From assembly GCA_009695535.1 (NCBI GenBank), contig SHZQ01000003.1, positions 1 through 41,179 of the forward strand: a DNA stretch of 41,179 nt. The letters are read 5' to 3'. Positions 21,606 through 40,772 of the stretch are shown piece by piece. The first letter of the stretch is position 1. Each line of letters opens with the position of its first letter. The DNA comes from Methyloglobulus sp. (lineage in GTDB: Bacteria; Pseudomonadota; Gammaproteobacteria; Methylococcales; Methylomonadaceae). The notes beneath the pieces are model-generated. The model saw nothing but the letters and a program-made list of their open reading frames with translations, had not been told where the DNA came from and searched no databases. Position numbers and translations under genes: made by a program.

Positions 21606-23516
21606 TTATTTCCCAAAAATCCACAAAACATGCTTAACCATATCCTTAACCGAATTTTCCTTGATTGTCTTGATTAACTCATCGACCTTGAACTCATGAT
21701 GCTGCTCATAAGCCACGCCATGTTGTGGCGCATCGGCCAAGCCGATTTCCCTGGCGTGCTCGACAAAGCCCTTGTTCTTCCAGAAAAATGCGCCCGGCAT
21801 GGTGGTTGGGATGACCAACACGAAGAATAAGGAACGCCCGAATGCTGCCATGACGAACATGGTTATGACTAATATCAGTCCCAAGATAGTGCTAGTAGCA
21901 CCTGATAAACCTGCCATTGCTAAGGTAACGGCTAATGCCAGATTAAAGCCGAGCAGGCAGTTACGAAGGATGTAGGACTTTCCGTATTCGGTAACTTGAT
22001 AATAGTAGGAGGCTGCGCCCTCGTGTTCCGCACCGTGCATAGCTTTGGCATGGGCGATATGTCCGATTCCTTCGATAGCCAAGCCAACAACCATAACTGC
22101 GGCGAGACTTTGTATCAGAAACTGGACTCCAACCATTTCCAGTGGTAACAGGCATACGCTGACAACCGCAATTATCAATGCACCAAAACTGAGCATCGTG
22201 CCAAAAAAGGCAGTACCTGTTTGCCAGTGATTCCAGAACGGACGGGCAGGGATGCGGTACAGTTTGTACATATAATACAAACCGATTGCTCCGCTCAGCA
22301 CTCCAATGACAGCAAAGCCGTTGGCAATCATGCTTATTACGGGGTTGTCAAATAAGCCAAAAACCGCATAACCCAGCAACCCCGTGTAAAACATGGAAAC
22401 TCCGGCAATCTCACGGCTAACGGGTGATAATCTTAAGTTATTAAAGCCACGATAAAAGCGGTGTGGTTTACCTAAGTGCATATTTAATTTGAACAAACCC
22501 CAGGTGCTTATGGTAACTATGACAAGGATTAGCGGGATAAACGCATTCGTATTTTTGAGCATAACAATGGCGCTTACATTTAGCCAGTTACCCAACATCA
22601 GCATAGCGAATGCCCCAACAGTAGCCTGTGTGCATAAGGTAAAAATAACGTGGGCGCTTTCGTGACTGGTCAGCAGCTTACGAAAATTCCAATGCTGTTT
22701 TTGTCCTTGCTTTTCATCAACAACGGGCTTGAACTTGCCTTCCTCGTCGTTGCGATGATATTTCAGCGGCATATCGTCGGTGCGCGTCATTTCCCGGTGC
22801 GTGGTGCGGGTTTGCTGGAAACGGATGTTGGGATGGGTAATGTCGGTCGTCGGAAATCCTGGGATTTCCGTATTTGCCTGAATGCGGTTCTCAGGGATGT
22901 TTTCGATCACACCGAAATCCAGCGCATTGCCCAAACAAGCGGCAACACAGGCGGGTTTCAGGTTAACCTCCAGGCGGTCTACGCACATATTGCATTTCGA
23001 CACCTCGCCCTTGACGGGATCAAGCTGCGGTGCATTATAAGGGCATACCCAAGTACAATAGCCGCAGCCGAAACAAATGTCAGGGTCTTGCAATACCGCG
23101 CCGTATTCGGCAAATTTCGTGTAGGCGCGGGTGGGGCAGCCCGTTAAGCAAACTGGGTCGTCGCAATGGTTGCATGCCATTGAAATATTGATGCGTTGGT
23201 AATCGGGATACGTACCGCCTTCGACAAAGCCCACGGAACGGAACGCGATATGCGCGGGGACATCGTTCTTTTCGCTACAAGCCGATTCGCAAGCATGGCA
23301 GCCGATACAGTTGTCGGCATTAAAATAGAAACCGTGTTGTTTATAGCGGTCTGGATTTTCACCAATAGCCGCATCACCGTTGATATTCAGGCTTTTACAC
23401 CGCAACTCGCTGCTGGCATCGGTTAATTCGATGTTAAGGTTGTAGCGGTTTTTTTCCTTGCTTTCTGCGTTGTTCAGAAAAGCGTATTTTGGTTCGTCGT
23501 CACGTACTTCAAACAT
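21606..23516 (-). CDS. Fused DmsB-like four-[4Fe-4S] ferredoxin and DmsC-like membrane anchor
   Basis: CIGCHACESAC, CNHCDDPVCLTGC, CFGCGYCTWVC, CNMC...CVAAC, then a multi-TM C-terminal half; downstream of nasA on the same strand. Confidence 0.88.
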   Translation of the reverse strand: MFEVRDDEPKYAFLNNAESKEKNRYNLNIELTDASSELRCKSLNINGDAAIGENPDRYKQHGFYFNADNCIGCHACESACSEKNDVPAHIAFRSVGFVEGGTYPDYQRINISMACNHCDDPVCLTGCPTRAYTKFAEYGAVLQDPDICFGCGYCTWVCPYNAPQLDPVKGEVSKCNMCVDRLEVNLKPACVAACLGNALDFGVIENIPENRIQANTEIPGFPTTDITHPNIRFQQTRTTHREMTRTDDMPLKYHRNDEEGKFKPVVDEKQGQKQHWNFRKLLTSHESAHVIFTLCTQATVGAFAMLMLGNWLNVSAIVMLKNTNAFIPLILVIVTISTWGLFKLNMHLGKPHRFYRGFNNLRLSPVSREIAGVSMFYTGLLGYAVFGLFDNPVISMIANGFAVIGVLSGAIGLYYMYKLYRIPARPFWNHWQTGTAFFGTMLSFGALIIAVVSVCLLPLEMVGVQFLIQSLAAVMVVGLAIEGIGHIAHAKAMHGAEHEGAASYYYQVTEYGKSYILRNCLLGFNLALAVTLAMAGLSGATSTILGLILVITMFVMAAFGRSLFFVLVIPTTMPGAFFWKNKGFVEHAREIGLADAPQHGVAYEQHHEFKVDELIKTIKENSVKDMVKHVLWIFGK

Positions 23517-23539
23517 AATGAATCCAGGGGTTTATGTAA

Positions 23540-23648
23540 TGCTGTTAAGTTATGGCTTAACCGTTCGTCCTGAGCTTGTCGAAGGGTGAATGGTTAAGTC
23601 GCCCATGGTTCGACAAGCTCGCCACGAACAGCTTAACCTGACAGCATC
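23540..23648. repeat. About 109-bp imperfect inverted repeat containing the cgttcgtcctgagcttgtcgaagg element
   Basis: atgctgttaagttatggcttaaccgttcgtcctgagcttgtcgaa ... ttcgacaagctcgccacgaacagcttaacctgacagcat. Confidence 0.8.
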
Positions 23649-23683
23649 GTGGTCTTGTAAATTTGCCATGAATAGTCCTAATA

Positions 23684-25876
23684 CTAATAAGTCCGCAACT
23701 CCTTGCTCAATTGCGCTGCAAAATCCTGGTCAACGTGCTCAATATTCACCGCCGATTGCTTAAATGCTGGCTGCCTTGAATGAGGATCGAGCAATCCCAA
23801 GGTCAAGCGGTTAACACAATCAAAAAAATGGAAGGGGATAAACACCATGTTTCTCGGTACGCGATGCGTTAGCATCACCATAACGACCGCATCGCCACGG
23901 CGGGAGGTAACGCGCACATAAGACTGATGTTTGATGCCTAAATCTTCTGCCGCATCGGGACTCATTTCCATGAACGGGATAGGGCTGAATTTGTTGTTGT
24001 TGCCAATCTTCCCCGTTTTAGTACGGGTATGCCAATGCTCAACAAGGCGACCGGAGTTCAGCCAAAATGGGAACTGCTCGTCCGGTACTTCGTTATTGTT
24101 GATGAAGGGCAGGGGAATCAATTTTGCCCTGCCATCGGGATAACAATAAGTCGCAGGCTTTGTATATAACCGTTGCGCACCTTTAGCACCCTGTGCAGCT
24201 TGCTCTTCAGTGTAAGGCCATTGGATGCCGCGTTGCTGCTCGATCAAGTCGTGGCTCATGCCACTAATGTCGCATAAGCGGCCTTTGCTTAGCTGTTTCA
24301 TTTCTTCAAAAACGTCTTCCGGTTTTTCCGGAAATTTAATGAGCTTGCCATTATCGAACCGCTTCGCCAGCTCATTAAAAATCTGCATGTCCGATTTGGA
24401 ATCGGCATAAGGCGGCTTGACCTGGCGGGTCAGGTTGACGCGCCGTTCGGTATTGGTGAACACGCCTTCTTTCTCTGCCCAAATCCCGGCGGGTAAAAAG
24501 ATGTGCGCGTATTGGCTGGTTTCGACATCGGTATACGCATCTTGTACGACCAAACATTCCAACTTTTCCAGTGTCTTGCGGATTCGTGGCGTGTTAGCCA
24601 TCGAGGTCATGGGGTTGGTGGCGACCAGCCACAGGCCCTTGATTTCGCCCGTTTCTATCGCAGGGAAAATATCGGTTTCCGTTAGGCCGCGTTTCTTGGG
24701 GAAGAACTCAGGGTCTATGCCCCAAAACTTGGCTATTTCCTCGCGGTCTTCCGGCTTCTCCAAGGCACGATAGCCAGGTAAGCCGGAGCAGGATGACCAC
24801 TCGCGCGTCCCCATCGCATTGCATTGGCCGGTAATCGACAGGCTGGTGCCGCCGGGCTTGCCGATATTGCCCGTCACCAAGTTCAGGTTGTTGATGCCGA
24901 CAACCCCATCGGAACCGTGGGTGCTTTGATTAATGCCCATCGTCCAGATACTCATAGCGCGATTCGCTTTGCCGTACAGCCGTGCAACCGTACGGATGGT
25001 GTCTTCGTCTATGCCGCACAATTTGGCGGCGCTGGTCGGATCGTAGTTTTCAACCTCTTTCGCCAGCTCCTCAAACCCGTTGGTGTTGGCGTTGATATAA
25101 TCGCGGTCTTCCAGCCCTTCTTTGAGGATGACATGGATCAAGGCGTTTTGCAGCACGACATCGGTACCTGGCGTAATCGGCAAATGGATGTCGGCATTTT
25201 GGGCGAAGATGGTGACACGAGGATCAACGACAATTAATGGAAACTTGCGTTTTTCCAAAGCTTCTTTCAACCGCCAATAGATGATCGGATGTTGCTCTGG
25301 CAGATTGGAACCCCAGGCGATCAGGCAATCGGTATGTTCAAAATCTTCATAGCAACCCGGCGGGCCGTCCGATCCGAACGAACGCTTATAGCCCGATACC
25401 GCCGAAGCCATACATAAGGTGGTGTTGCCATCATAGTTATTGGTGCCGATTGCACCCCGTGCGAGTTTGCCCAGGGTATAAAATTCTTCGGTGAGGATTT
25501 GCCCAGTCGAAACAATGGCAAAGGAATCGCGTCCATACTTGGCCTGGATACGCTTGATTTCTGAGGCCATCTTGTCCAGTGCGGTATCCCAATTGGTTGG
25601 GTCGTAAGGCTCATGGATGTAATCCCGTATCATCGGTTTGCTGGCGCGACCCGTGGCCTCAAACACTTCGTACTCAAAAATCCCTTTCAGGCATAACTTG
25701 CCACGGTTGACATCCGCACCGCCCACGCCACGCGAAGCGACAGGCTGTCCTTGGGCATTCGTGCCGATTTCAATAGAGCAGCCAGTAGAGCAATAACCGC
25801 AAGTCGAATACGTCCACTTGACCACGCCCTTATCGGCCATTTTGATGGGGTTTTTTATATTTCTTCCAAATAACAT
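23684..25876 (-). CDS. nasA: Assimilatory nitrate reductase catalytic subunit (NasA/NarB-type molybdopterin oxidoreductase)
   Basis: TYSTCGYCSTGCSIEIG Fe-S motif, GKLCLKG, WGSNLPEQHPI, NSGRLVEHWHTRTKTG; no twin-Arg signal. Confidence 0.92.
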   Translation of the reverse strand: MLFGRNIKNPIKMADKGVVKWTYSTCGYCSTGCSIEIGTNAQGQPVASRGVGGADVNRGKLCLKGIFEYEVFEATGRASKPMIRDYIHEPYDPTNWDTALDKMASEIKRIQAKYGRDSFAIVSTGQILTEEFYTLGKLARGAIGTNNYDGNTTLCMASAVSGYKRSFGSDGPPGCYEDFEHTDCLIAWGSNLPEQHPIIYWRLKEALEKRKFPLIVVDPRVTIFAQNADIHLPITPGTDVVLQNALIHVILKEGLEDRDYINANTNGFEELAKEVENYDPTSAAKLCGIDEDTIRTVARLYGKANRAMSIWTMGINQSTHGSDGVVGINNLNLVTGNIGKPGGTSLSITGQCNAMGTREWSSCSGLPGYRALEKPEDREEIAKFWGIDPEFFPKKRGLTETDIFPAIETGEIKGLWLVATNPMTSMANTPRIRKTLEKLECLVVQDAYTDVETSQYAHIFLPAGIWAEKEGVFTNTERRVNLTRQVKPPYADSKSDMQIFNELAKRFDNGKLIKFPEKPEDVFEEMKQLSKGRLCDISGMSHDLIEQQRGIQWPYTEEQAAQGAKGAQRLYTKPATYCYPDGRAKLIPLPFINNNEVPDEQFPFWLNSGRLVEHWHTRTKTGKIGNNNKFSPIPFMEMSPDAAEDLGIKHQSYVRVTSRRGDAVVMVMLTHRVPRNMVFIPFHFFDCVNRLTLGLLDPHSRQPAFKQSAVNIEHVDQDFAAQLSKELRTY

Positions 25877-25985: not shown

Positions 25986-26045
25986 GCTGGATTAACATAC
26001 ATCGCTCCCACGCTCCAGCGTGGGAGCGATGTATGTTAATCCAGC
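25986..26045. repeat. 60-bp palindrome, 29-bp perfect arms and 2-nt loop, overlapping the phzF stop codon
   Basis: gctggattaacatacatcgctcccacgct cc agcgtgggagcgatgtatgttaatccagc. Confidence 0.95.
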
Positions 26046-26953
26046 AAGTCTATCGTGCCCTGGGCAAACAACACCGCTGCACCCCCGACCCGCAACGACA
26101 AAGACTCATGCCCTTTATTGTCCATTTCCAGGTTGATAACACTGCGGCGACTGTTAGCATCGCCCCTATCTACTGCGAAAACATGCGTACCTTTTTGGGT
26201 ATGCTCAAATGAACAGAGGTAGGAGGCAAATGCTGGCATGGCACTACCTATTGGCGGATCATCGTAAAGTCCAATGTGCGGCCCTAACAAACGGGCGTTG
26301 AAGTCAGAATCAGCAAAAGGCGTTTTGGGTGCGAACAGCAAGATTTCCTGTGCGGCGGTTTGTGGCGCAATGGATTGACTCCAAGCCTCGCTGTTAAACT
26401 TTGCCTGCCGGACAGTCTCGTAATTCCACACCGGAACTATTAAATAGGGAAAGCCGCACGATACCAATCGTGGCGAGTATTTTTTATGGTCTAATTCAGT
26501 TTGCTTGATGCTCAAAAAACTAGCCAGTTCTTCATCCGCTGGCGCAAATCGGTCAATGATGGAAGCCACATTACGGGCAAATTGTACAAACGTGGGCTTA
26601 CCATCTACAACAGTAATATTAACATCAATCGGCCCTATATTCTGTTCGAGAACAATAGGCGTAATCCCGGATTTCAAAGAAATGTCTCCGCACAATCCCA
26701 AAACATAAGCCGTCGCAATAATCGGATGCCCAGCAAAATCGATTTCTTTTTTAGGGGAAAAAATCCGCATTTTGCGTTTTGCATCACTCCCTTCTGGATG
26801 AAAAACGAAGACGGTTTCGGACAAGTTCAGCTCTCTTGCCAAGAGCTTCATAGTTGCGTCGCTTAAGCCATCGGCATTAGGAAATACGGCTATCTGCGCG
26901 CCATTAAACAACTGAGTGGTGAACACATCCGCGATGTAGTAATCAATTTTCAT
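26036..26953 (-). CDS. PhzF-family isomerase-fold protein
   Basis: IADVFTTQLFNGAQIAVFPNADGL, LSETVFV, EIDFAGHPIIATAYVL. Confidence 0.9.
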   Translation of the reverse strand: MKIDYYIADVFTTQLFNGAQIAVFPNADGLSDATMKLLARELNLSETVFVFHPEGSDAKRKMRIFSPKKEIDFAGHPIIATAYVLGLCGDISLKSGITPIVLEQNIGPIDVNITVVDGKPTFVQFARNVASIIDRFAPADEELASFLSIKQTELDHKKYSPRLVSCGFPYLIVPVWNYETVRQAKFNSEAWSQSIAPQTAAQEILLFAPKTPFADSDFNARLLGPHIGLYDDPPIGSAMPAFASYLCSFEHTQKGTHVFAVDRGDANSRRSVINLEMDNKGHESLSLRVGGAAVLFAQGTIDLLD

Positions 26954-27324
26954 ACGCTGACCTTTTCATGCACGATATCAGCACTAATACCAGTCGTCGT
27001 GACTTGGATTTCTACCTTGCTATTCTCAATACGAACTGGATAAACAAGCACACTGAACTGTTCATCTTCAATGCAAAACCCTGTTTTTAAACTAAAATGC
27101 TGCTTGTATAAGGGTGATGCCACCACAGGCTCACCTTTGATGTCACCTATCACGCCACGCGATAATACATTGGCACAACCAATAGGATCGTAGTTATGGA
27201 GAGCATAAACCGCATTTTCTTTGACCATGTAAAAAATCGCCACCTGCTGACCTTCGACTAACGCACATACGCCAGAATTCGGTTGTAAATCATCCGTGTT
27301 ACAGACCTGTCGCCACACAGCCAT
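26950..27324 (-). CDS. nirD: Nitrite reductase small subunit NirD
   Basis: CNTDDLQPNSGVCALVEGQQVAIFYM...VYALHNYDPIGCANVLSRGVIGDIKGEPVVASPLYKQHFSL; overlaps nirB stop. Confidence 0.92.
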   Translation of the reverse strand: MAVWRQVCNTDDLQPNSGVCALVEGQQVAIFYMVKENAVYALHNYDPIGCANVLSRGVIGDIKGEPVVASPLYKQHFSLKTGFCIEDEQFSVLVYPVRIENSKVEIQVTTTGISADIVHEKVSV

Positions 27325-29861
27325 TAAGCAACCTCCATCATTTTGAAACGCTTGCGCTCTTCTTCGTCCGCAGGGCGAAGCTGTCCGCGTTCTTCCACAA
27401 ACACCACGTTATCGTCGGGCTGATCGCTGTTGATAAAATGCCGGAAGCGCTTCAGTTTGCTTTCATCTTCAATCGTGGTTTTCCATTCGCATTGATAAGT
27501 GTTGAGGACGTGTTGCATCTGATGTTCGAGTTGTTCGCACAACCCCAGCTTATCTTCAATAACCACTGACTTCAGATAATCCAAACCGCCTTCCATGTTC
27601 TCCATCCAAACTGATGTCCGTTGCAGACGGGCTGCGGTGCGTACATAAAAAATCAATAACCGATCAATGTATTTGATTAAGGTTGCTTTATCTAAGCTGG
27701 TTGCAAATAAATCCCCATGGCGCGGTTTCATGCCGCCATTTCCGCAGACATATAAATTCCAGCCTGATTCAGTCGCTATAACACCGATGTCTTTACTTTG
27801 TGCTTCCGCACATTCGCGTGTGCAGCCAGAAACGGCAAACTTGAGCTTATGCGGAGATCGCAAGCCTTTGTAACGATTTTCCAGCTCTATCGCCAAACCC
27901 ACGCTATCGTCGATTCCATAACGACACCACGAACTGCCAACACAGGATTTTACCGTGCGTAAAGACTTGCCATAAGCGTGACCGGATTCAAATCCGGCAT
28001 CAATCAACTCTTTCCAGATGTGCGGTAATTGGTCAACGCGTGCGCCGAACAAGTCCACACGCTGCCCACCGGTAATCTTAGTGTAGAGCTTATATTTCTT
28101 GCCTACTTGCCCCAATGCAATCAACATGTCGGGGCTGATTTCTCCGCCCGTAATGCGCGGCACGACGGAGTAAGTGCCGTCTTTTTGCATGTTTGCCAGG
28201 AAGGTATCGTTGGTATCCTGCAAGCCCAAATGGTCATTGGATAACACGTATTCGTTCCAATAAGATGCCAAAATAGAGCCTATAGCTGGTTTGCAAATAT
28301 CACAGCCTTTGCCTTTACCGTGGGTTTCCAGCAGATCATCAAAAGTTTTAATTTGCTCGACGACGACGAGGTTATACAAATCCTGGCGTGTATAGGGGAA
28401 GTGTTCGCAAATATCCGTGTTGACTTCAATACCGTGTTTGAGCAATTCGCAATCCATCACTGACTTTAACAATGCCGCACAACCGCCGCAGCCTGTAGAA
28501 GCTTTGGTCTCCGCTTTTAACGCACCTAGCGAGGTACTTCCTGCTTCTATCGCTTGGCATATTGCACCTTTAGTCACGTCATAGCAGGAACAAATTTGCG
28601 CCGACATCGGCAGGGCATCGGGCCCTAAGCCAATAGATTCATCAGAACGCGGGGGTAAAATCAACGCGTCAGGATTTTCTGGCAGTTCGATACCGTTTAA
28701 GCAGTATTGCAATAAAGTGCCGTAGCCCGAAGCGTCACCAACTAACACCGCACCCAGTAATTGCTTTTTGTCATGACTGACCACCAGCCGCTTATAGACT
28801 TCGCTGGCACCATTTTGGTAGGTGTACACCAATGCGCCTTGCGACTTGGCGTGGGCATCGCCAATGCTGGCGACATCAACACCCATCAGTTTAAGCTTGG
28901 TACTCATATCCGCGCCAGTGAAACTGCCATTTCCTCCGAAAAGATCAGCAACAACGGCACGCGCCATCGCGTAGCCTGGCGCGACCAAACCGAAGATCAT
29001 GCCATTCCACAACGCACATTCGCCGATGGCGTAAATAGCAGGATCGGAAGTCTTGCATTGGTTGTCGATGACGATACCACCACGCTGCCCTACCTCTAAG
29101 CCGCAAGCACGGGCAATATCATCACGCGGACGAATACCAGCAGAAAACAGCACGATGTCAGTTTCCAATTCTTCGCCATCGGCAAAGCACATTTTGTTCA
29201 CACACTGATCGCCATCGGTAATCAAAGTAGTGTTTTTGCCAGTGTGAACCTTTACACCTAAATCTTCGATCTTATGCCTGAGCATCGCGCCGCCAGCTTC
29301 ATCTAACTGCACCGCCATCAGGCGTGGCGCAAACTCGACAACATGGGTCTCCAAGCCCAAATCTTTAAGCGCATTGGCCGCTTCCAAGCCCAACAAACCA
29401 CCGCCTACTACGACACCAATTTTACTTGATTTTGCTGCACTCGCCATCGCCTCAAGATCTTCAATGGTGCGGTAAACCAAACAGTTAGCTCTGTCATGAC
29501 CTGGCACAGGCGGCACAAAAGGATAAGAACCCGTCGCCAAAACCAAGATGTCATAGGCAATGGTTACGCCTTTTTCCGAAGTGACGGTTTTGTTATCGCG
29601 ATCAATGTAATCAGCCTTGTCACCTAAATGAATGGTGATGCCGTTGCTGGCAAAAAAGTCTTCATCGACCAAAGCCAGATCGGCTGCGGTTTTACCTGAG
29701 AAAAAAGCGGACAGATGGACGCGATCATACGCCGCCCGTGGCTCTTCGCAGAACGTCGTAACGTGATAGCTGTCTTTGCACTGGCTTGCCATTAGACTGG
29801 TCAAAAAATTCTGACCCACCATGCCATTACCGATAACAACCAGTGACTTTTTTGTACTCAT
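27324..29861 (-). CDS. nirB: Nitrite reductase [NAD(P)H] large subunit NirB
   Basis: FAD/NAD domain VVIGNGMVGQNFL, BFD-like CSCYDVTKGAI, GCGGCAALL, siroheme motifs CVGSSWCRYG and CTRECAEAQSKDIGVIATESGWNLYVCGNGG. Confidence 0.96.
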   Translation of the reverse strand: MSTKKSLVVIGNGMVGQNFLTSLMASQCKDSYHVTTFCEEPRAAYDRVHLSAFFSGKTAADLALVDEDFFASNGITIHLGDKADYIDRDNKTVTSEKGVTIAYDILVLATGSYPFVPPVPGHDRANCLVYRTIEDLEAMASAAKSSKIGVVVGGGLLGLEAANALKDLGLETHVVEFAPRLMAVQLDEAGGAMLRHKIEDLGVKVHTGKNTTLITDGDQCVNKMCFADGEELETDIVLFSAGIRPRDDIARACGLEVGQRGGIVIDNQCKTSDPAIYAIGECALWNGMIFGLVAPGYAMARAVVADLFGGNGSFTGADMSTKLKLMGVDVASIGDAHAKSQGALVYTYQNGASEVYKRLVVSHDKKQLLGAVLVGDASGYGTLLQYCLNGIELPENPDALILPPRSDESIGLGPDALPMSAQICSCYDVTKGAICQAIEAGSTSLGALKAETKASTGCGGCAALLKSVMDCELLKHGIEVNTDICEHFPYTRQDLYNLVVVEQIKTFDDLLETHGKGKGCDICKPAIGSILASYWNEYVLSNDHLGLQDTNDTFLANMQKDGTYSVVPRITGGEISPDMLIALGQVGKKYKLYTKITGGQRVDLFGARVDQLPHIWKELIDAGFESGHAYGKSLRTVKSCVGSSWCRYGIDDSVGLAIELENRYKGLRSPHKLKFAVSGCTRECAEAQSKDIGVIATESGWNLYVCGNGGMKPRHGDLFATSLDKATLIKYIDRLLIFYVRTAARLQRTSVWMENMEGGLDYLKSVVIEDKLGLCEQLEHQMQHVLNTYQCEWKTTIEDESKLKRFRHFINSDQPDDNVVFVEERGQLRPADEEERKRFKMMEVA

Positions 29862-30334: not shown

Positions 30335-31825
30335 ATGTCATCACCAAAATTTAACCTGTTCTCATTTTCGGGGAACATGAAAATCCTCCACATGACCTGG
30401 ATGGCGTTTTTTATCAGCTTTGTCGTGTGGTTTAACCATGCGCCGTTAATGTTGACGATTGCCAAAACCTTGCACTTAAGCCAGTCGGAAATAAAAACCA
30501 TCCTGATCTTAAACGTGGCGATAACCATTCCGGCGCGGATTATTATCGGTATCCTAGTTGATAAGTTTGGCCCCAAGCGGACTTACTCGACGTTACTTGC
30601 GCTTGGCAGCATTCCTTGTTTTATGTTTGCGAGCGCGGATAATTTTCAACAACTAGCCCTTGCCCGATTCCTGATGGGCTTTATTGGTGCGGGTTTTGTG
30701 ATAGGCATCCGCATGGTTGGCGAGTGGTTTCCGGCGCGGCAAGTCGGGATTGCCGAAGGCATATATGGCGGTTGGGGTAATTTTGGCTCGGCGGCCGCCG
30801 CTATCGCATTGCCATCGCTTGCACTGCTTTTTGGCGGTGATGAAGGCTGGCGTTATGCGATAGCGTCCACAGGCATTATCGCACTGCTTTATTCCGTCGT
30901 GTATTTCTTCAGTGTGACAGACACACCCAAGGGTTCAACTTATTTCAAACCCAAAAAAGCAGGGGCTATGGAAGTCAGCAGCATCTGGGATTTGTTCTTT
31001 TATGTCGCAATGAACATTCCTTTGTACGCCACCTTAAGTTTGCTAACTTGGAAGCTGTCATCATCCGGCAGCGCAAACTACACCAATCTGTTATCAGACA
31101 CGGCCGCCATCTTCATCCATATCGGTATCTGGTGCTTATTCGTGTACAACGTCTACAAAATCATCCATGTCAATGAGGAACATTTACAAAAGCCAGTAGC
31201 AGAGATTCACAAATACAAGTTCAAACAAGTTGCGGTTCTGGACTTGGCGTATATGATTGCCTTCGGTTCAGAACTGGCGGTGGTATCAATGTTGCCGATG
31301 TTCTTTTTTGAAACCTTTCATCAATCTCAAAATATTACGATGGTGCAAGCAGGCTTATTGGGCGGGTGTTTTGCCTTTATCAACCTCATCGCCCGTCCGG
31401 CTGGCGGTTGGTTAAGTGATAAATTTGGGCGAAAATTATCCCTGTCTGTTTTTATCGCAGGGATGTCCGTCGGTTATTTCATCATGTCGTTCATTGATTC
31501 CTCATGGTCTATTCCAGTTGTCGTATTGCTTACCATGTCTTGCTCGTGCTTTGTGTCCGGCGGTTGCGGCGCAGTTTACGCCATCGTGCCGCTAATTAAA
31601 CGCCGCATGACTGGGCAAATCGCCGGTATGGTTGGTGCTTATGGTAATGTTGGTGGGGTATTATTTTTGACGGTTTTATCTTTTGTTACGCCAAGCATCT
31701 TCTTTTTGGTAATGCACGGGGTCGCTTTGGTAGTGCTGGTAGCCGTGCAATTTATTGATGAACCCAAAGGTCACATGGCAGAAGTGCAGGAAGATGGTAC
31801 GATTGAGATGATTGAATTAAATTAA
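30335..31825 (+). CDS. narK: MFS nitrate/nitrite transporter, NarK/NasA-transporter family
   Basis: 12-TM-like hydrophobicity; ITIPARIIIGILVDKFGPKRTYS, MGFIGAGFVIGIRMVGEWFPARQVGIAEGIYGGWGNFGSA, GGVLFLT. Confidence 0.9.
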   Translation: MSSPKFNLFSFSGNMKILHMTWMAFFISFVVWFNHAPLMLTIAKTLHLSQSEIKTILILNVAITIPARIIIGILVDKFGPKRTYSTLLALGSIPCFMFASADNFQQLALARFLMGFIGAGFVIGIRMVGEWFPARQVGIAEGIYGGWGNFGSAAAAIALPSLALLFGGDEGWRYAIASTGIIALLYSVVYFFSVTDTPKGSTYFKPKKAGAMEVSSIWDLFFYVAMNIPLYATLSLLTWKLSSSGSANYTNLLSDTAAIFIHIGIWCLFVYNVYKIIHVNEEHLQKPVAEIHKYKFKQVAVLDLAYMIAFGSELAVVSMLPMFFFETFHQSQNITMVQAGLLGGCFAFINLIARPAGGWLSDKFGRKLSLSVFIAGMSVGYFIMSFIDSSWSIPVVVLLTMSCSCFVSGGCGAVYAIVPLIKRRMTGQIAGMVGAYGNVGGVLFLTVLSFVTPSIFFLVMHGVALVVLVAVQFIDEPKGHMAEVQEDGTIEMIELN

Positions 31826-31831
31826 TTATCC

Positions 31832-33568
31832 ATGACCACATCTTCACTTAAAGCCACTTTAGGTTTTGCCACTGATAAAGGCTTAAAAGCCGACAATGAA
31901 GATTTTGTTGGCGCAATTATCCCGAACGAACCGCAATTGACCCACAAAGGCATCGTCGCGGCGATTGCTGATGGCATGAGCGGCAGCGATGCGGGTAAAT
32001 TGGCAAGCCAATCTTGTGTCGGCAGCTTCCTCAATGATTATTTCAGCACGCCGGATTCCTGGTCGGTTAAGCAAGCTGGACAAAAAATCCTTTCTGCCAC
32101 TAATTCCTGGCTGTATAGCCAAGGGCAAATCCGCTACCAATCGACCAAAGGCATGGTCAGCACCTTGAGCATCATCGTCTTAAAATCCACCACAGCCCAC
32201 CTCTTTCATGTCGGTGACTCCCGTATTTACCGCTTACGGAAAGGCAATCTTGAGCAAATCACCCGCGACCATCGCATCTGTATTTCCCAGGATAAAAATT
32301 ATCTTAGCCGAGCAATGGGCATAGAACCCAGGCTGGAAGTCGATTACAAATCTTTGCCGCTTGAGCAAAACGACTTGTTTTTGATGACCACGGACGGAAT
32401 CCACGATTTTATCGACGACAAAACCCTTAAGGCATTGCTGACAGAAAGCACCGACCTGACTTTGCTTGCTGAAAAAATTCTACAGCAAGCAAAAGCCAAT
32501 AACAGCGATGATAATCTGACTTGCCAATTGCTTAAGGTGGATGCGTTACCTGATGCAAAGGAAGATGAAATCCTGCGCCGCCATGCCAACTTACCGTTTC
32601 CCCCGCCGTTGCAAGCTGGCGCAATACTTGATGGCTATCGTATTGAGGAAGAATTACATGCCAGCAAGCGCACCCAGATATACCGCGCTTTGGATACCCT
32701 TACCAACACGCAAGTCATCTTAAAAACACCTTCGATACTCTACGACGACGACACCCATTTCATCGAACATTTTCTGCATGAAGAATGGGCTGGAAAACGG
32801 ATTAACCATGACAATGTTCTAAAAATCATCACACAAAATCGCCCCAAAAGTGCGGTGTATTACGTCACCGAATATCTGGAAGGGCAAACTCTCAGGGACT
32901 GGATGATGGCAAACCCCAAAGCCGACATCATCACAGCTAGGAAAATAGTGGGGCAAATAGCCAAGGGGCTTCGCGCATTCCACCGCAAGGAAATGTTGCA
33001 CCAAGACCTAAAACCAGAAAACATCATGTTTGACAAAAATGGCGTGGTCAAAATTATCGACTTTGGCTCGGTAAAAATTGCCGGCATCGCTGAAATTACC
33101 CCCACTGATCTTGACGGAGCAGATAATATACTTGGCACCTTGAATTACACCGCGCCGGAATACCACACGGGGCAACGCGGCAGCATAAAATCAGACCTGT
33201 ACTCGCTGGCGGTAATTACCTACGAAATGCTCAACGGCAGTTTACCTTTTGGTGAGGATATGCCGGAAAAGCCCAGCCAAGGCTATCTCGCCAATTTACG
33301 CTATGTCCCTAGTTTTCATCACAACCCTATGACACCCATCTGGATTGACGGCGCGTTGAAAAAAGCCACTTCAATTACGCCAGGGCTGCGTTATGAGGAA
33401 TTATCGGAATTTCTTTACGACCTCAACACCCCTAACCCTAGCTTTATACGAACTGAAGACGGTATTCCTCTAATACAACGCAATCCTTTACGATTCTGGC
33501 AGGGTTTATCTGCGATTCTCATCATTATTAATCTGGTCTTGTTGTATTTAATGACTTTAATGCAGTAA
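31832..33568 (+). CDS. PP2C-type phosphatase/Ser-Thr protein kinase fusion with C-terminal TM
   Basis: VAAIADGMSGSDAGKLAS, LFHVGDSRIYRL, MTTDGIHD; kinase motifs LHQDLKPENIMF, IDFGSVKI, TLNYTAPEY; C-term LSAILIIINLVLLYLMTL. Confidence 0.9.
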   Translation: MTTSSLKATLGFATDKGLKADNEDFVGAIIPNEPQLTHKGIVAAIADGMSGSDAGKLASQSCVGSFLNDYFSTPDSWSVKQAGQKILSATNSWLYSQGQIRYQSTKGMVSTLSIIVLKSTTAHLFHVGDSRIYRLRKGNLEQITRDHRICISQDKNYLSRAMGIEPRLEVDYKSLPLEQNDLFLMTTDGIHDFIDDKTLKALLTESTDLTLLAEKILQQAKANNSDDNLTCQLLKVDALPDAKEDEILRRHANLPFPPPLQAGAILDGYRIEEELHASKRTQIYRALDTLTNTQVILKTPSILYDDDTHFIEHFLHEEWAGKRINHDNVLKIITQNRPKSAVYYVTEYLEGQTLRDWMMANPKADIITARKIVGQIAKGLRAFHRKEMLHQDLKPENIMFDKNGVVKIIDFGSVKIAGIAEITPTDLDGADNILGTLNYTAPEYHTGQRGSIKSDLYSLAVITYEMLNGSLPFGEDMPEKPSQGYLANLRYVPSFHHNPMTPIWIDGALKKATSITPGLRYEELSEFLYDLNTPNPSFIRTEDGIPLIQRNPLRFWQGLSAILIIINLVLLYLMTLMQ

Positions 33569-36304: not shown

Positions 36305-37471
36305 TTACTTCGCCGTCGCCCGATAATACTCAATCGCTGCCGCCACGCCACTGCCCGGTTTAATATCAAAACCATTATCCAGCAACGCCATTTCCACCCC
36401 GGCAATCGCGCCTAACATAGATACATCGTTCATGTCGCCGACGTGGCCGATACGGAAGGCTTTGCCAGCCAATTCCGACAAGCCTGCGCCCAGGGAGATA
36501 TTGTATTTGCTGAACGCCGTGCTGATGACGTGACGGGCATCCTTGTCTTCCGGCACCATGATGGCGGTGACGGTATTGGATTCAAATCCTGGCTGGGCGC
36601 ATTGCTTTAAGCCCCAGGCGGCAACGGCTTTTCTTGTGCCTTCTGCCAAGCGGTGATGACGGGCGTAGACATTTTCCATGCCTTCTTCCAGCAATAAATC
36701 CAGCGCCTTACGTAAGCCATACAGGATAGGCAGGTTGGGAGTATAAGGCGTGTAGCCATCCTTATTAGCATTCATTTGATCGCGTAAATCTAGGAAACAA
36801 CGTGGGTAAGTGGATGTTTCGGTAGCTTTTAAGGCTTTTTGGCTGAACGCCAAAAATGCGCCACCCGCAGGCAGCATGAAACCTTTTTGCGATCCGCTGA
36901 TCGCGCCGTCCACACCCCATTCGTCCATACGGAAATCCAGGCTGGCAATGGAACTTACTCCATCTACAAACATGAATGCAGGATGCTTTGCCGCATCCAT
37001 TGCTTTGCGAACTCCAGCAATGTCGCTGGTTACGCCTGTGGCGGTTTCGTTATGGGTAGCGAGAAATGCTTTGATCTCGTGGTTTTTATCTTCTTTCAGC
37101 CGCGCTTCAAGATGGTCTAGCGGGATGCCTTTACCCCATTCGACTTGATGGATTTCGACATCAAAACCTAAGCGCTTTGCCATTTCGGCCCAGAGATGGC
37201 CGAATTGCCCAAAGCGATAGATCAGCACTTTATCGCCAGGATTTAAGCAGTTGGTCAACGCAATTTCCCAACCTGCTGTTCCAGTTGCGGGGAAGATGAA
37301 GCACTGCCCAGTTTCGGTGCGGAAAATCTTTTTTAGATCCTGCAACAGTGGAGTCAGCAGTTTGGGGAAGATTGGAGAACGATGGTCTTCCATCGCAATG
37401 TGCATCGCATTAAGGACTTCGTTGGGTACGTTGGTGGGGCCTGGAATATACAGGTGATTACGACCAGCCAT
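36305..37471 (-). CDS. sgaA: Serine-glyoxylate aminotransferase
   Basis: AGRNHLYIPGPTNVPNEVLNAMHIAMEDHRSPIFPKL, FPATGTAGWEIALTN, FVDGVSSIASLDFRMDEWGVDGAISGSQKGFMLPAG. Confidence 0.95.
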   Translation of the reverse strand: MAGRNHLYIPGPTNVPNEVLNAMHIAMEDHRSPIFPKLLTPLLQDLKKIFRTETGQCFIFPATGTAGWEIALTNCLNPGDKVLIYRFGQFGHLWAEMAKRLGFDVEIHQVEWGKGIPLDHLEARLKEDKNHEIKAFLATHNETATGVTSDIAGVRKAMDAAKHPAFMFVDGVSSIASLDFRMDEWGVDGAISGSQKGFMLPAGGAFLAFSQKALKATETSTYPRCFLDLRDQMNANKDGYTPYTPNLPILYGLRKALDLLLEEGMENVYARHHRLAEGTRKAVAAWGLKQCAQPGFESNTVTAIMVPEDKDARHVISTAFSKYNISLGAGLSELAGKAFRIGHVGDMNDVSMLGAIAGVEMALLDNGFDIKPGSGVAAAIEYYRATAK

Positions 37472-37614
37472 GGTGTTGCCTCTAAGGTAGTTGTTAAATG
37501 GGGTTTGGTGATTTCTGGTGCAGTGAAAAACTGATTTTATCTGTAATACTGCACCTTAATGTCGGTAATAATGACATAGCCAAAAATAATCGGCAATCAC
37601 TCGCACGTTAAAAA

Positions 37615-37642
37615 TTGACTTTACTTGCACTAAACGTAGAAT
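37615..37642 (+). promoter_or_regulatory. Sigma70-like promoter upstream of mcl
   Basis: TTGACT-N16-TAGAAT, about 84 nt upstream of ATG 37726. Confidence 0.45.
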
Positions 37643-37725
37643 GGTGGGTTGATTTTGATATGGATTTTGTGATGATAGCTCGAACTGTCCTCCAAATTCC
37701 CCCAGTTACAAATTAGGATTATTTA

Positions 37726-38676
37726 ATGAGTCATACTTTATACACAGCGTCTGTACAACGCGTTCAACGCTGTGAATTAGCGGTTCCGGGTTCAAGCCCT
37801 GAAATGTTTGAAAAAGCGTTGAAGAGTGGTGTAGATTTCATTTTTCTTGATTTGGAAGACGCGGTTGCACCGGACGATAAGCTGCAAGCACGTAAGAACG
37901 TCATCCAAGCAATCAACGATATTGACTGGAAAAGCCGCGGCATCACGGTTTCTGTCCGCATCAATGGCTTGGATACGCAATATATGGTGCGTGATGTCGT
38001 CGATCTGGTCGAACAAGCAGGTGCGAAAATAGACACGATACTTATCCCAAAAGTCGGGGTTTATGCCGATGTGTATATGGTGGAAGCTATGCTTAACCAA
38101 TTAGAAATGCAGCAAGGCTTAAAAAATAAAATCGGTATTGAAGCCCTGATTGAAACCGCCCTGGGTATGGCGAACGTTGAAGACATCGCACGTAATGGCG
38201 CATGTGGTCGGCTTGAGGCATTGCACTTTGGTGTTGCTGATTACGCCGCCAGCAATCGAGCCAGGACGACTAATATCGGCGGCCTGAACCCTGATTATCC
38301 TGGTGACCAATGGCATGCAGCCATTAGCCGGATGACAGTAGCTTGTCGTGCATTCGGTCTGCGGCCTATTGATGGGCCTTTTGGCGACTTTAAAGATCCC
38401 GACGGCTTCAAGGCTGCTGCAAAACGGGCAGCGGCATTAGGATGTGAAGGCAAATGGGCGATCCATCCCTCACAAGTCGAATTGGCTAATGAAGTGTTCA
38501 CGCCACCTGCTGCTGAAGTCGAAAAAGCCAAACGCATCCTTATTGCATTGCAAGAAGCCGCAGCGCAAGGCAAAGGCGCAGCCGCCTTGGATGGTCGCTT
38601 GATTGATGCTGCTTCCGAAAAAATGGCGAACAATGTCGTACGGGCAGCAGAAGCTATTGCTGCAAAAACCAAATAA
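37726..38676 (+). CDS. mcl: Malyl-CoA lyase (L-malyl-CoA/beta-methylmalyl-CoA lyase)
   Basis: RCELAVPGSSPEMFEKALKSGVDFIFLDLEDAVAPDDK, LIPKVGVYADVYMVE, KWAIHPSQV. Confidence 0.94.
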   Translation: MSHTLYTASVQRVQRCELAVPGSSPEMFEKALKSGVDFIFLDLEDAVAPDDKLQARKNVIQAINDIDWKSRGITVSVRINGLDTQYMVRDVVDLVEQAGAKIDTILIPKVGVYADVYMVEAMLNQLEMQQGLKNKIGIEALIETALGMANVEDIARNGACGRLEALHFGVADYAASNRARTTNIGGLNPDYPGDQWHAAISRMTVACRAFGLRPIDGPFGDFKDPDGFKAAAKRAAALGCEGKWAIHPSQVELANEVFTPPAAEVEKAKRILIALQEAAAQGKGAAALDGRLIDAASEKMANNVVRAAEAIAAKTK

Positions 38677-38700
38677 CCACAGAAACACGAGGAAGATGCC

Positions 38701-39885
38701 GTGGATATTCATGAGTATCAAGCAAAAGAATTATTAAGCGGCTACGGCGTTAAAATTGCCGAGGGCGCGTTGGCTTACAGCCCCGAAGATGCGGTGCAAC
38801 GCGCACGCGATATTGGCGGTCATATCTGGGCTGTGAAAGCACAAATTCACTCTGGCGCACGCGGCAAAGCTGGCGGAATTAAAATCTGCAAAACGCACGA
38901 AGAAGTTGCCGAAGCGGCGGAATATTTATTAGGCAAACGCTTAGTTACCCATCAAACCGGCCCTGCGGGAAAAGTTTGTAGCCGATTGTATATTGAAGCC
39001 GGAACGGAAATCGCCAAAGAATTGTATTTTTGCTTCCTGGTTGACCGCGGCTCAGAACGTATCGTCATGGTCGGCTCCTCGCAAGGCGGCATGGATATTG
39101 AAGAGTTGGCGGAGACTAATCCCGATGCCATCACCAAAATTTACATCGAACCCGCCGTAGGATTGCAGGATTATCAAGCGCGGCAAATGGCTTTTGCGAT
39201 GGGTTTGGATGCAGAAATTATGAGCCACGCGATCAAAACCATCCGAGGCTGCTACCGCGCTTTGCGTGAGTTAGATGTCAGCATGCTGGAGATCAATCCA
39301 CTGGTCGTGACCAATCATCACGAACTGATTGCGCTAGATGCAAAAATGAGCTTCGACGACAACGCTTTGTTTCGTCAGCCGAAAATTGCCGAATTACGCG
39401 ACAAAACCCAAGAAGATCCCCGCGAAATGGCAGCAGCCGACCGTGGTTTAAGCTATGTCGGCTTAGATGGCGACATCGGCTGCATGATTAACGGCGCTGG
39501 CTTGGCAATGGCGACAATGGACATGATTAAACTGGCAGGTGGCGAGCCCGCAAACTTTCTTGACGTGGGCGGCGGCGCATCCGCAGAACGCACCGAAAAA
39601 GCATTTCGCTTAGTACTAGCCGATGAAAATGTAAAAGCCATGCTAGTGAACATTTTTGCAGGTATCAACCGTTGCGACTGGATTGCTGAAGGAGTCGTCC
39701 ATGCCGTACAAAAACTGGATATGAAAATTCCGCTCATCGTCAGGCTTTCAGGCACAAACGTAGAAGAAGGTCGTCGCATTATTGCGGAAAGCGGCTTGCC
39801 GATTATTACCGCAGACACCTTGGCAGAAGCGGCTGAGAAAGCCGTGCAAGCTCGAAATGCTGCCGTTACTAAGGGAGGCTGCTAG
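38701..39885 (+). CDS. mtkA: Malate-CoA ligase (malate thiokinase) beta subunit
   Basis: [17 protein letters not shown] (GTG start), [60 protein letters not shown]. Confidence 0.93.
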
Positions 39886-40772
39886 TGGCTATTTTAATCA
39901 ACGAAAACACCCGAATCCTTGTCCAAGGTTTTACCGGAAAAATCGGCACTTTCCATGCTGAGGACATGATGAAGTACGGCTCTAAAGTCGTCGGCGGCGT
40001 AACGCCTGGCAAAGGTGGGCAGAAACACTTAGGCTTACCCGTGTTTAATACCGTTAAGGAAGCCGTACAGGAGACCCAAGCGGATGCAAGTATCATCTTT
40101 GTACCACCCGCGTTTGCGGCAGATTCCATTATGGAAGCGGCGGATGCTGGGATTAAATACTGCGTGGCGATTACCGATGGTATTCCAACGCAAGACATGA
40201 TGACTGTCAAAAATTTTCTGCGGCGTTTCCCCGATGATGAACGCATGATCTTAACGGGACCCAACTGTGCAGGCACGATTAGCCCAGGGCGCTCCATGTT
40301 AGGCATCATGCCTGGACATATCTATATGCAAGGCAATGTCGGCATCGTAGGCCGCTCAGGTACTTTGGGTTATGAAGCGGCTGCACAAATGAAAGCCTTG
40401 GGGATAGGTGTCAGCACCTCGGTTGGTATTGGTGGCGACCCCATCAACGGCAGCGCACATCAAGTCATCCTGGCAAAATTCGAGAAAGATCCAGAAACCA
40501 AAGTGATTATAATGATCGGTGAAATCGGCGGCCCGCAGGAAGTGGAAGCGGGAATTTACGCCAAAGCCAATATGACTAAGCCGGTCGTTGCTTATATAGC
40601 TGGTTTAACTGCGCCCGAAGGTCGTCGTATGGGCCATGCTGGCGCGATAATCTCATCCGCCAGCGAAGGCGCAGCCGAAAAAGTCGCCAGGCTGAAAGAC
40701 TTGGGCGTCATCATCTGCCCTACGCCTGCAGCAATGGGGGAAACTATTGCCAAGGTGTTGGCAGGGTTGTAA
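39885..40772 (+). CDS. mtkB: Malate-CoA ligase (malate thiokinase) alpha subunit
   Basis: ILVQGFTGKIGTFHAEDMMKYGSKVVGGVTPGKGG, GPNCAGTISPG, GNVGIVGRSGTLGYEAAAQM, AGLTAPEGRRMGHAGAII. Confidence 0.93.
   Translation: MAILINENTRILVQGFTGKIGTFHAEDMMKYGSKVVGGVTPGKGGQKHLGLPVFNTVKEAVQETQADASIIFVPPAFAADSIMEAADAGIKYCVAITDGIPTQDMMTVKNFLRRFPDDERMILTGPNCAGTISPGRSMLGIMPGHIYMQGNVGIVGRSGTLGYEAAAQMKALGIGVSTSVGIGGDPINGSAHQVILAKFEKDPETKVIIMIGEIGGPQEVEAGIYAKANMTKPVVAYIAGLTAPEGRRMGHAGAIISSASEGAAEKVARLKDLGVIICPTPAAMGETIAKVLAGL

What the first reader, a model, noticed from the sequence alone, without database searches (positions are those of the whole stretch)
21606..25876. NarB-sized assimilatory nitrate reductase paired with a single-chain DmsB-DmsC fusion: possible quinol-driven nitrate assimilation
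Seen: nasA (730 aa, no twin-Arg signal, too short for the extra C-terminal 2Fe-2S region of long NasA proteins) is followed on the same strand by one 636-aa ORF with 16 cysteines in a four-cluster DmsB pattern joined to a multi-TM DmsC-like domain. Established: assimilatory nitrate reductases normally take electrons from ferredoxin/flavodoxin or an NAD(P)H-dependent partner, while DmsB and DmsC are usually separate subunits moving electrons between quinol and a molybdoenzyme. Inference: electrons could reach cytoplasmic NasA from the quinol pool through one fused partner. No NasB/NasC-type reductase was seen in the window.
Basis: partly seen in the sequence, partly recalled or inferred. Interest (0 to 1): 0.72.

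Follow-up and report, generated by a model that had tools for sequence, protein, structure and literature searches.

The report
Nitrate reductase with quinol-oxidising membrane partner
In many methane- and sulfur-oxidising bacteria the enzyme that starts nitrate assimilation appears to draw its electrons from the membrane quinone pool, through one fused iron-sulfur and membrane protein, instead of from NAD(P)H or ferredoxin, a pairing that I did not find described for this enzyme family.

Summary
A 730-aa Nas-type nitrate reductase (23684-25876, minus) is followed by a 636-aa single chain that joins a DmsB-type four-[4Fe-4S] domain to an eight-helix DmsC-type anchor (21606-23516). Upstream lie phzF, nirD and nirB; narK diverges. 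The window is from a Methyloglobulus-like methanotroph MAG. In 80 named gammaproteobacterial records, 75 have the same short nasA directly upstream of the fusion; the other 5 are cut by contig ends. In 301 genomes of the order, fusion and short NasA co-occur (57 both, 3 and 2 single) and largely avoid the long 2Fe-2S NasA. All 16 cluster cysteines and both DmsC quinol-site residues are invariant in 85 fusions. Loop charges put the iron-sulfur domain in the cytoplasm, the reverse of E. coli DmsC. The catalytic subunit groups with Nas/Nap, not with DmsA-like or formate enzymes. None of 22 fusion-bearing genomes lacking long NasA has a NasB reductase; none has NapA, 13 have no NarG. Best reading: a membrane-anchored, quinol-driven cytoplasmic nitrate reductase for assimilation, a new Nas + DmsBC module combination. 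A 2020 phylogenomic survey states that no member of this clade has such partners. Electron flow itself is untested.

The parts
21606..23516 (-). Single-chain DmsB-DmsC fusion, 636 aa: proposed quinol-oxidising, iron-sulfur electron-transfer and membrane-anchor subunit
22896..23339 (-). DmsB-type domain (residues 60-207): 16 Cys for four [4Fe-4S] clusters (70,73,76,80,115,118,123,127,148,151,154,158,175,178,190,194)
   Evidence: TIGR02951 and Fer4_11 matches; one-to-one with E. coli DmsB; invariant in 85
21801..22664 (-). DmsC-type anchor (residues 285-572), eight transmembrane helices
   Evidence: PF04976; helices in both models; charge asymmetry
22476..22478 (-). Codon of His347, equivalent of E. 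coli DmsC His65 (quinol site)
   Evidence: 85 of 85
22410..22412 (-). Codon of Glu369, equivalent of E. coli DmsC Glu87 (quinol site)
   Evidence: 85 of 85
23684..25876 (-). Short Nas-type nitrate reductase catalytic subunit, 730 aa, no twin-Arg signal, no C-terminal 2Fe-2S region
25412..25414 (-). Codon of Cys155, putative Mo ligand, in the motif LCM(A/S)S of nitrate reductases (formate dehydrogenases have C-H or another residue here)
26036..26953 (-). PhzF-family protein, conserved between nirD and nasA in many Methylococcales and Cycloclasticus; role unknown
26950..27324 (-). nirD, nitrite reductase small subunit
27324..29861 (-). nirB, NAD(P)H nitrite reductase large subunit
30335..31825 (+). 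narK-type nitrate/nitrite transporter, divergent from nirB
31832..33568 (+). PP2C phosphatase-Ser/Thr kinase protein, often beside narK in these clusters (possible regulator)

Best explanation
The two genes encode one membrane-anchored quinol:nitrate oxidoreductase on the cytoplasmic face. The DmsC-type part oxidises quinol near His347/Glu369, the four [4Fe-4S] clusters of the DmsB-type part pass electrons to the [4Fe-4S] and Mo-bisMGD of the short NasA, and NasA reduces nitrate to nitrite, which NirBD reduces to ammonium with NAD(P)H. The complex replaces the NasB / C-terminal 2Fe-2S route and spares NAD(P)H in bacteria for which NAD(P)H is costly. Shown: genes, domains, ligands, linkage, distribution, clade and charge-based topology. 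Inferred: physical complex, electron donor, direction, assimilatory role, NAD(P)H-sparing benefit.
For: Operon nirB-nirD-phzF-nasA-fusion with narK divergent, conserved in relatives. Short nasA directly upstream of the fusion in 75 of 80 named records; the other 5 begin 206 bp or less before the fusion; 5 of 5 more at phylum level. 301 genomes: both 57, fusion alone 3, short NasA alone 2. Long NasA in 10 of 60 fusion genomes against 170 of 241 others. No NasB in 22 fusion genomes lacking long NasA, present in all 9 controls; no NapA; no NarG in 13 of the 22. 16 Cys, His347, Glu369 invariant in 85 and equivalent to E. coli DmsB/DmsC. Lys+Arg on the Fe-S side 16.6 against 0.8 opposite in the fusion, 3 against 6 in E. 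coli DmsC. Short NasA lies with nitrate reductases, support 98/97; joining it to DmsA-like enzymes is rejected, p 0.02. NasA/NapA active-site motifs.
Against: No biochemical or genetic evidence. The iron-sulfur domain of the model is low-confidence and fold matches are weak (best E 2.8e-3). Ten of 60 fusion genomes also carry long NasA, so the routes are not strictly exclusive. The co-occurrence test ignores shared ancestry. Nitrate could be respired as well as assimilated.
Confidence: 0.75

Rival explanations
1. Same complex, different purpose: a respiratory or redox-balancing nitrate reductase (electron sink under low oxygen, NirB making ammonium) rather than an assimilatory one.
For: Quinol coupling is typical of respiration; NirBD can also act in nitrite ammonification (general knowledge); carriers include methanotrophs and sulfur oxidisers, many from oxygen-poor habitats.
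Against: Catalytic side and quinol site face the same (cytoplasmic) side, so no charge separation is expected; 9 of 22 fusion genomes carry a separate NarG as well; the fusion tends to replace the long assimilatory NasA; no denitrification gene in the cluster.
Confidence: 0.14
2. NasA takes electrons from a soluble ferredoxin or flavodoxin, like NarB, and the fusion has another partner or only tethers NasA.
For: NarB-sized NasA proteins accept ferredoxin (established for cyanobacteria); no complex was demonstrated.
Against: Strict adjacency and co-occurrence; full conservation of all cluster and quinol-site residues; no other molybdoenzyme beside the fusion in the window; the window genome's second relative is a formate dehydrogenase elsewhere.
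Confidence: 0.07
3. The catalytic subunit is not a nitrate reductase but a formate dehydrogenase or other CISM-type enzyme feeding quinone.
For: The best NCBIfam bit score is Fdh-alpha (563.5, below its cut-off 666.25), above NasC (511).
Against: C-M at the Mo ligand and Nas/Nap motifs GCYxD and NAMGxRE; tree places it with nitrate reductases and apart from formate dehydrogenases; nirBD and narK neighbours.
Confidence: 0.03

Closest known systems
Assimilatory nitrate reductase NasA/NasC/NarB
   Same: Cytoplasmic, N-terminal [4Fe-4S], Cys-Met at the Mo site, next to nirBD and narK; size of NarB/NasC (~710-730 aa)
   Different: Partner is a quinol-type DmsB-DmsC chain, not NasB, a C-terminal 2Fe-2S domain, a CPR-like domain or ferredoxin; own clade within Nas/Nap
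DmsABC (E. coli DMSO reductase) and other CISM enzymes
   Same: Four-cluster DmsB module and eight-helix DmsC module with the same His and Glu; 37% and 24% identity to E. coli DmsB and DmsC
   Different: DmsB and DmsC fused; catalytic subunit Nas-type; no twin-Arg signal; topology reversed, facing the cytoplasm
SoeABC sulfite dehydrogenase (from general knowledge)
   Same: Cytoplasm-facing molybdoenzyme with DmsB- and DmsC-like subunits
   Different: Separate genes, a ~950-aa SoeA of another clade, and the opposite electron direction (into quinone)
NarGHI (from general knowledge)
   Same: Quinol-driven cytoplasmic nitrate reduction
   Different: NarG is Asp-ligated and of another clade; NarI is a haem b protein; conserves energy

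Membership tests
Assimilatory nitrate reductase (Nas) | N-terminal [4Fe-4S] motif and Cys-ligated Mo with C-M signature | tested here: met
Assimilatory nitrate reductase (Nas) | Phylogenetic place among nitrate reductases | tested here: met
   With Nas/Nap 98/97; no cyanobacterial NarB or B. subtilis NasC sequence was available
Assimilatory nitrate reductase (Nas) | Score over the curated cut-off of an existing Nas model | tested here: not met
   NasC 511 of 1100, NasA_Halo 476 of 1000; those are narrow equivalog models, not definitions of the whole family
Assimilatory nitrate reductase (Nas) | Nitrate assimilation gene context (nirBD, nitrate transporter) | tested here: met
Assimilatory nitrate reductase (Nas) | NAD(P)H or ferredoxin donor route (NasB, C-terminal 2Fe-2S, CPR domain) | tested here: not met
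   No such gene or domain; a soluble ferredoxin cannot be excluded. This is a trait of known members, not of the catalytic family itself
CISM (DmsABC type) | Four-[4Fe-4S] electron-transfer subunit | tested here: met
   16 Cys invariant
CISM (DmsABC type) | DmsC-type membrane anchor with quinol-site His and Glu | tested here: met
CISM (DmsABC type) | Catalytic subunit of the DmsA-like clade | tested here: not met
   Joint clade rejected, p-AU 0.02
CISM (DmsABC type) | Twin-Arg export of the catalytic subunit | tested here: not met
Quinol:nitrate oxidoreductase | Quinol-dependent nitrate reduction in membranes | not testable with these tools
   Needs an assay
NapA | Score over TIGR01706 cut-off and export signal | tested here: not met
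   412.8 of 930.55; no twin-Arg

The most novel reading that the evidence does not exclude
A Nas-clade nitrate reductase recombined with a DmsBC quinol module gives a widespread non-electrogenic, quinol-driven entry to nitrate assimilation that replaces NasB/ferredoxin in methanotrophs, sulfur oxidisers and their animal symbionts, and so moves the first two electrons of nitrate assimilation from NAD(P)H to the respiratory chain.
Probability: 0.65. Interest if true: 0.75.

Novelty: new variant of a known kind. Interest (0 to 1): 0.64.

Why it matters
If right, one of the two reductive steps of nitrate assimilation is powered by the quinone pool in a large set of methane- and sulfur-oxidising bacteria, including symbionts of mussels, clams and tubeworms. 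That changes NAD(P)H budgets in their metabolic models, shows what can supply electrons to nitrate reductases that lack NasB, and contradicts the published statement (PMC7331816) that no Nas/Nap-clade enzyme is tied to four-cluster and membrane-anchor subunits. It is directly testable in cultured methanotrophs.

Tried and rejected
First structure model from 10 sequences: iron-sulfur domain unusable; 72 sequences helped the anchor only. PDB fold search gave only weak matches to PsrC, alternative complex III and bd oxidase. NasA plus fusion as one complex could not be modelled (too long, one chain only). B. subtilis NasC and Synechococcus NarB could not be fetched; the control genomes ring but give no loci. 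PMC4013037, on methylotroph nitrate genes, concerns NasA-CysJ fusions, not this one. Plasmid records hold no place covering 80% of the fusion. The formate dehydrogenase reading was dropped after the active-site and tree tests. Pairwise distances of NasA and fusion correlate (rho 0.73), but shared descent alone would give that. No Rfam element in the window. Two fusion genomes without detected short NasA (G197, G297) have the fusion at a contig start; in G187 a 423-aa ORF that I read as a transposase lies 0.8 kb upstream.

Full report
Observation. The upstream protein is a molybdopterin oxidoreductase of 730 aa; the downstream one joins a Fer4_11 domain (112-203) to a DmsC domain (285-566) in one 636-aa chain. 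Upstream on the same strand are phzF, nirD and nirB; divergent are narK and a PP2C-kinase protein. The closest named records are Methyloglobulus MAGs; the genome held is 1.59 Mb, 88% complete.

Is the fusion real and is it tied to nasA? In 301 genomes of the order the fusion is found in 60 and the short NasA in 59, together in 57 (tally and Fisher test). Of the exceptions, fusion or nasA lies at a contig end in G197, G297, G250 and G002; in G187 a 423-aa ORF that I read as a transposase sits upstream of the fusion. Among the 80 best named records across Gammaproteobacteria (Methylococcales, Cycloclasticus, Thiotrichales, Chromatiaceae, Sedimenticola, Solemya and Lamellibrachia symbionts and others), 75 have short nasA directly upstream and 5 begin 206 bp or less before the fusion. 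Median spacing is 65 bp. In 399 genomes of the phylum, five more full fusions appeared, two of them outside the class, all with short nasA upstream. The distant DmsB/DmsC hits that I opened there are split genes or lack NasA, and sit beside other molybdoenzymes.

What replaces what? The long NasA with a C-terminal Cys-rich tail is the usual form in this order (180 of 301) and is under-represented in fusion genomes: 10 of 60 against 170 of 241. This is a count of genomes and is not corrected for kinship. In 22 well-assembled fusion genomes without long NasA, no NasB-type reductase was found beyond NirB itself and distant flavoproteins, whereas all nine control genomes with long NasA have one at 55-100% identity. 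None of the 22 has NapA and 13 have no NarG, among them single-contig genomes (G116, G019). One of the 22 (G140) has a NasA-CPR-like ORF elsewhere. Two genomes (L062, L063) carry both systems back to back: short nasA-fusion-nasB-long nasA.

What is the catalytic subunit? It has the C-M signature at the Mo ligand and the GCYxD and NAMGxRE blocks of nitrate reductases, where the formate dehydrogenases compared have C-H or C-Q. In a tree of 36 proteins the short NasA proteins form one clade (100/100) inside a clade of nitrate reductases (98/97), apart from formate dehydrogenases and from DmsA-like enzymes; forcing them together with the latter is rejected at p 0.02. The best existing NCBIfam model is a formate dehydrogenase one, below its cut-off, so automatic annotation may mislead.

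What is the partner? All 16 cysteines align one-to-one with E. coli DmsB, and His65 and Glu87 of E. coli DmsC, known from general knowledge as quinol-site residues, correspond to His347 and Glu369. All 18 are invariant in 85 fusions. Both models show eight long helices. On the side of the iron-sulfur domain the loops carry 16.6 Lys+Arg on average, against 0.8 on the other side, the same way round in 85 of 85 sequences; in E. coli DmsC the counts are 3 and 6. By the positive-inside rule the iron-sulfur domain is cytoplasmic, as the lack of a twin-Arg signal on NasA also suggests, and opposite to DmsABC.

Mechanism. The simplest reading is quinol to DmsC part, to four clusters, to NasA, to nitrate, with NirBD taking nitrite onward. 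Thermodynamics favour this direction (nitrate/nitrite about +0.42 V, general knowledge). With both half-reactions on one side no charge separation is expected. The carriers seen are largely methane and sulfur oxidisers, in which NAD(P)H is expensive; a quinol-driven first step would spare it. This last point is inference.

Known or new. [quoted passage not shown] PMC4378227 reports NasC proteins without NasB and an unclear donor in Sulfobacillus, so the question of alternative donors is open. Searches of open-access papers found no description of a Nas enzyme with a DmsB-DmsC partner; subscription papers were not searchable. Quinol-driven nitrate reduction serving assimilation is not new in principle (NarGHI in some bacteria, general knowledge), but this enzyme combination appears to be. 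I rate it a new variant of a known kind.

Limits. No assay, no complex model, weak model of the iron-sulfur domain, no authentic NarB or B. subtilis NasC in the tree, and a MAG as source.

Noticed in passing
L062:8483-16653 and L063:7367-15603: Two methanotroph genomes carry both nitrate reductase systems in tandem (short nasA, fusion, nasB-type reductase, long nasA); a natural comparison of the two donor routes.
   Followed up: partly
L080:6672-10988: A 1438-aa NasA fused to a flavodoxin/FAD-reductase-like (CysJ-like, read by eye) tail in a Methylococcales genome, a third electron route in the same order.
   Followed up: no
window 26036-26953: A PhzF-family isomerase gene sits between nirD and nasA in many Methylococcales and Cycloclasticus clusters; no obvious role in nitrate assimilation.
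   Followed up: no
window 31832-33568: A PP2C phosphatase-Ser/Thr kinase protein is conserved next to narK across many of these clusters and may regulate nitrate uptake or assimilation.
   Followed up: no
L078:9832-10687: In one genome (G143) the fusion gene is split between its iron-sulfur and anchor domains by an element of about 0.85 kb with inverted ends (TAGGGGCTGTTGCC); that genome also has NarG.
   Followed up: partly
L203 (G546): A 1215-aa ORF appears to join a DmsA-like molybdoenzyme to a DmsB-like domain, another kind of CISM fusion.
   Followed up: no
window 36305-40772: An aspartate-glyoxylate-type aminotransferase, a malyl-CoA/citrate lyase-like protein and both subunits of a CoA ligase form a cluster resembling serine-cycle genes.
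   Followed up: no
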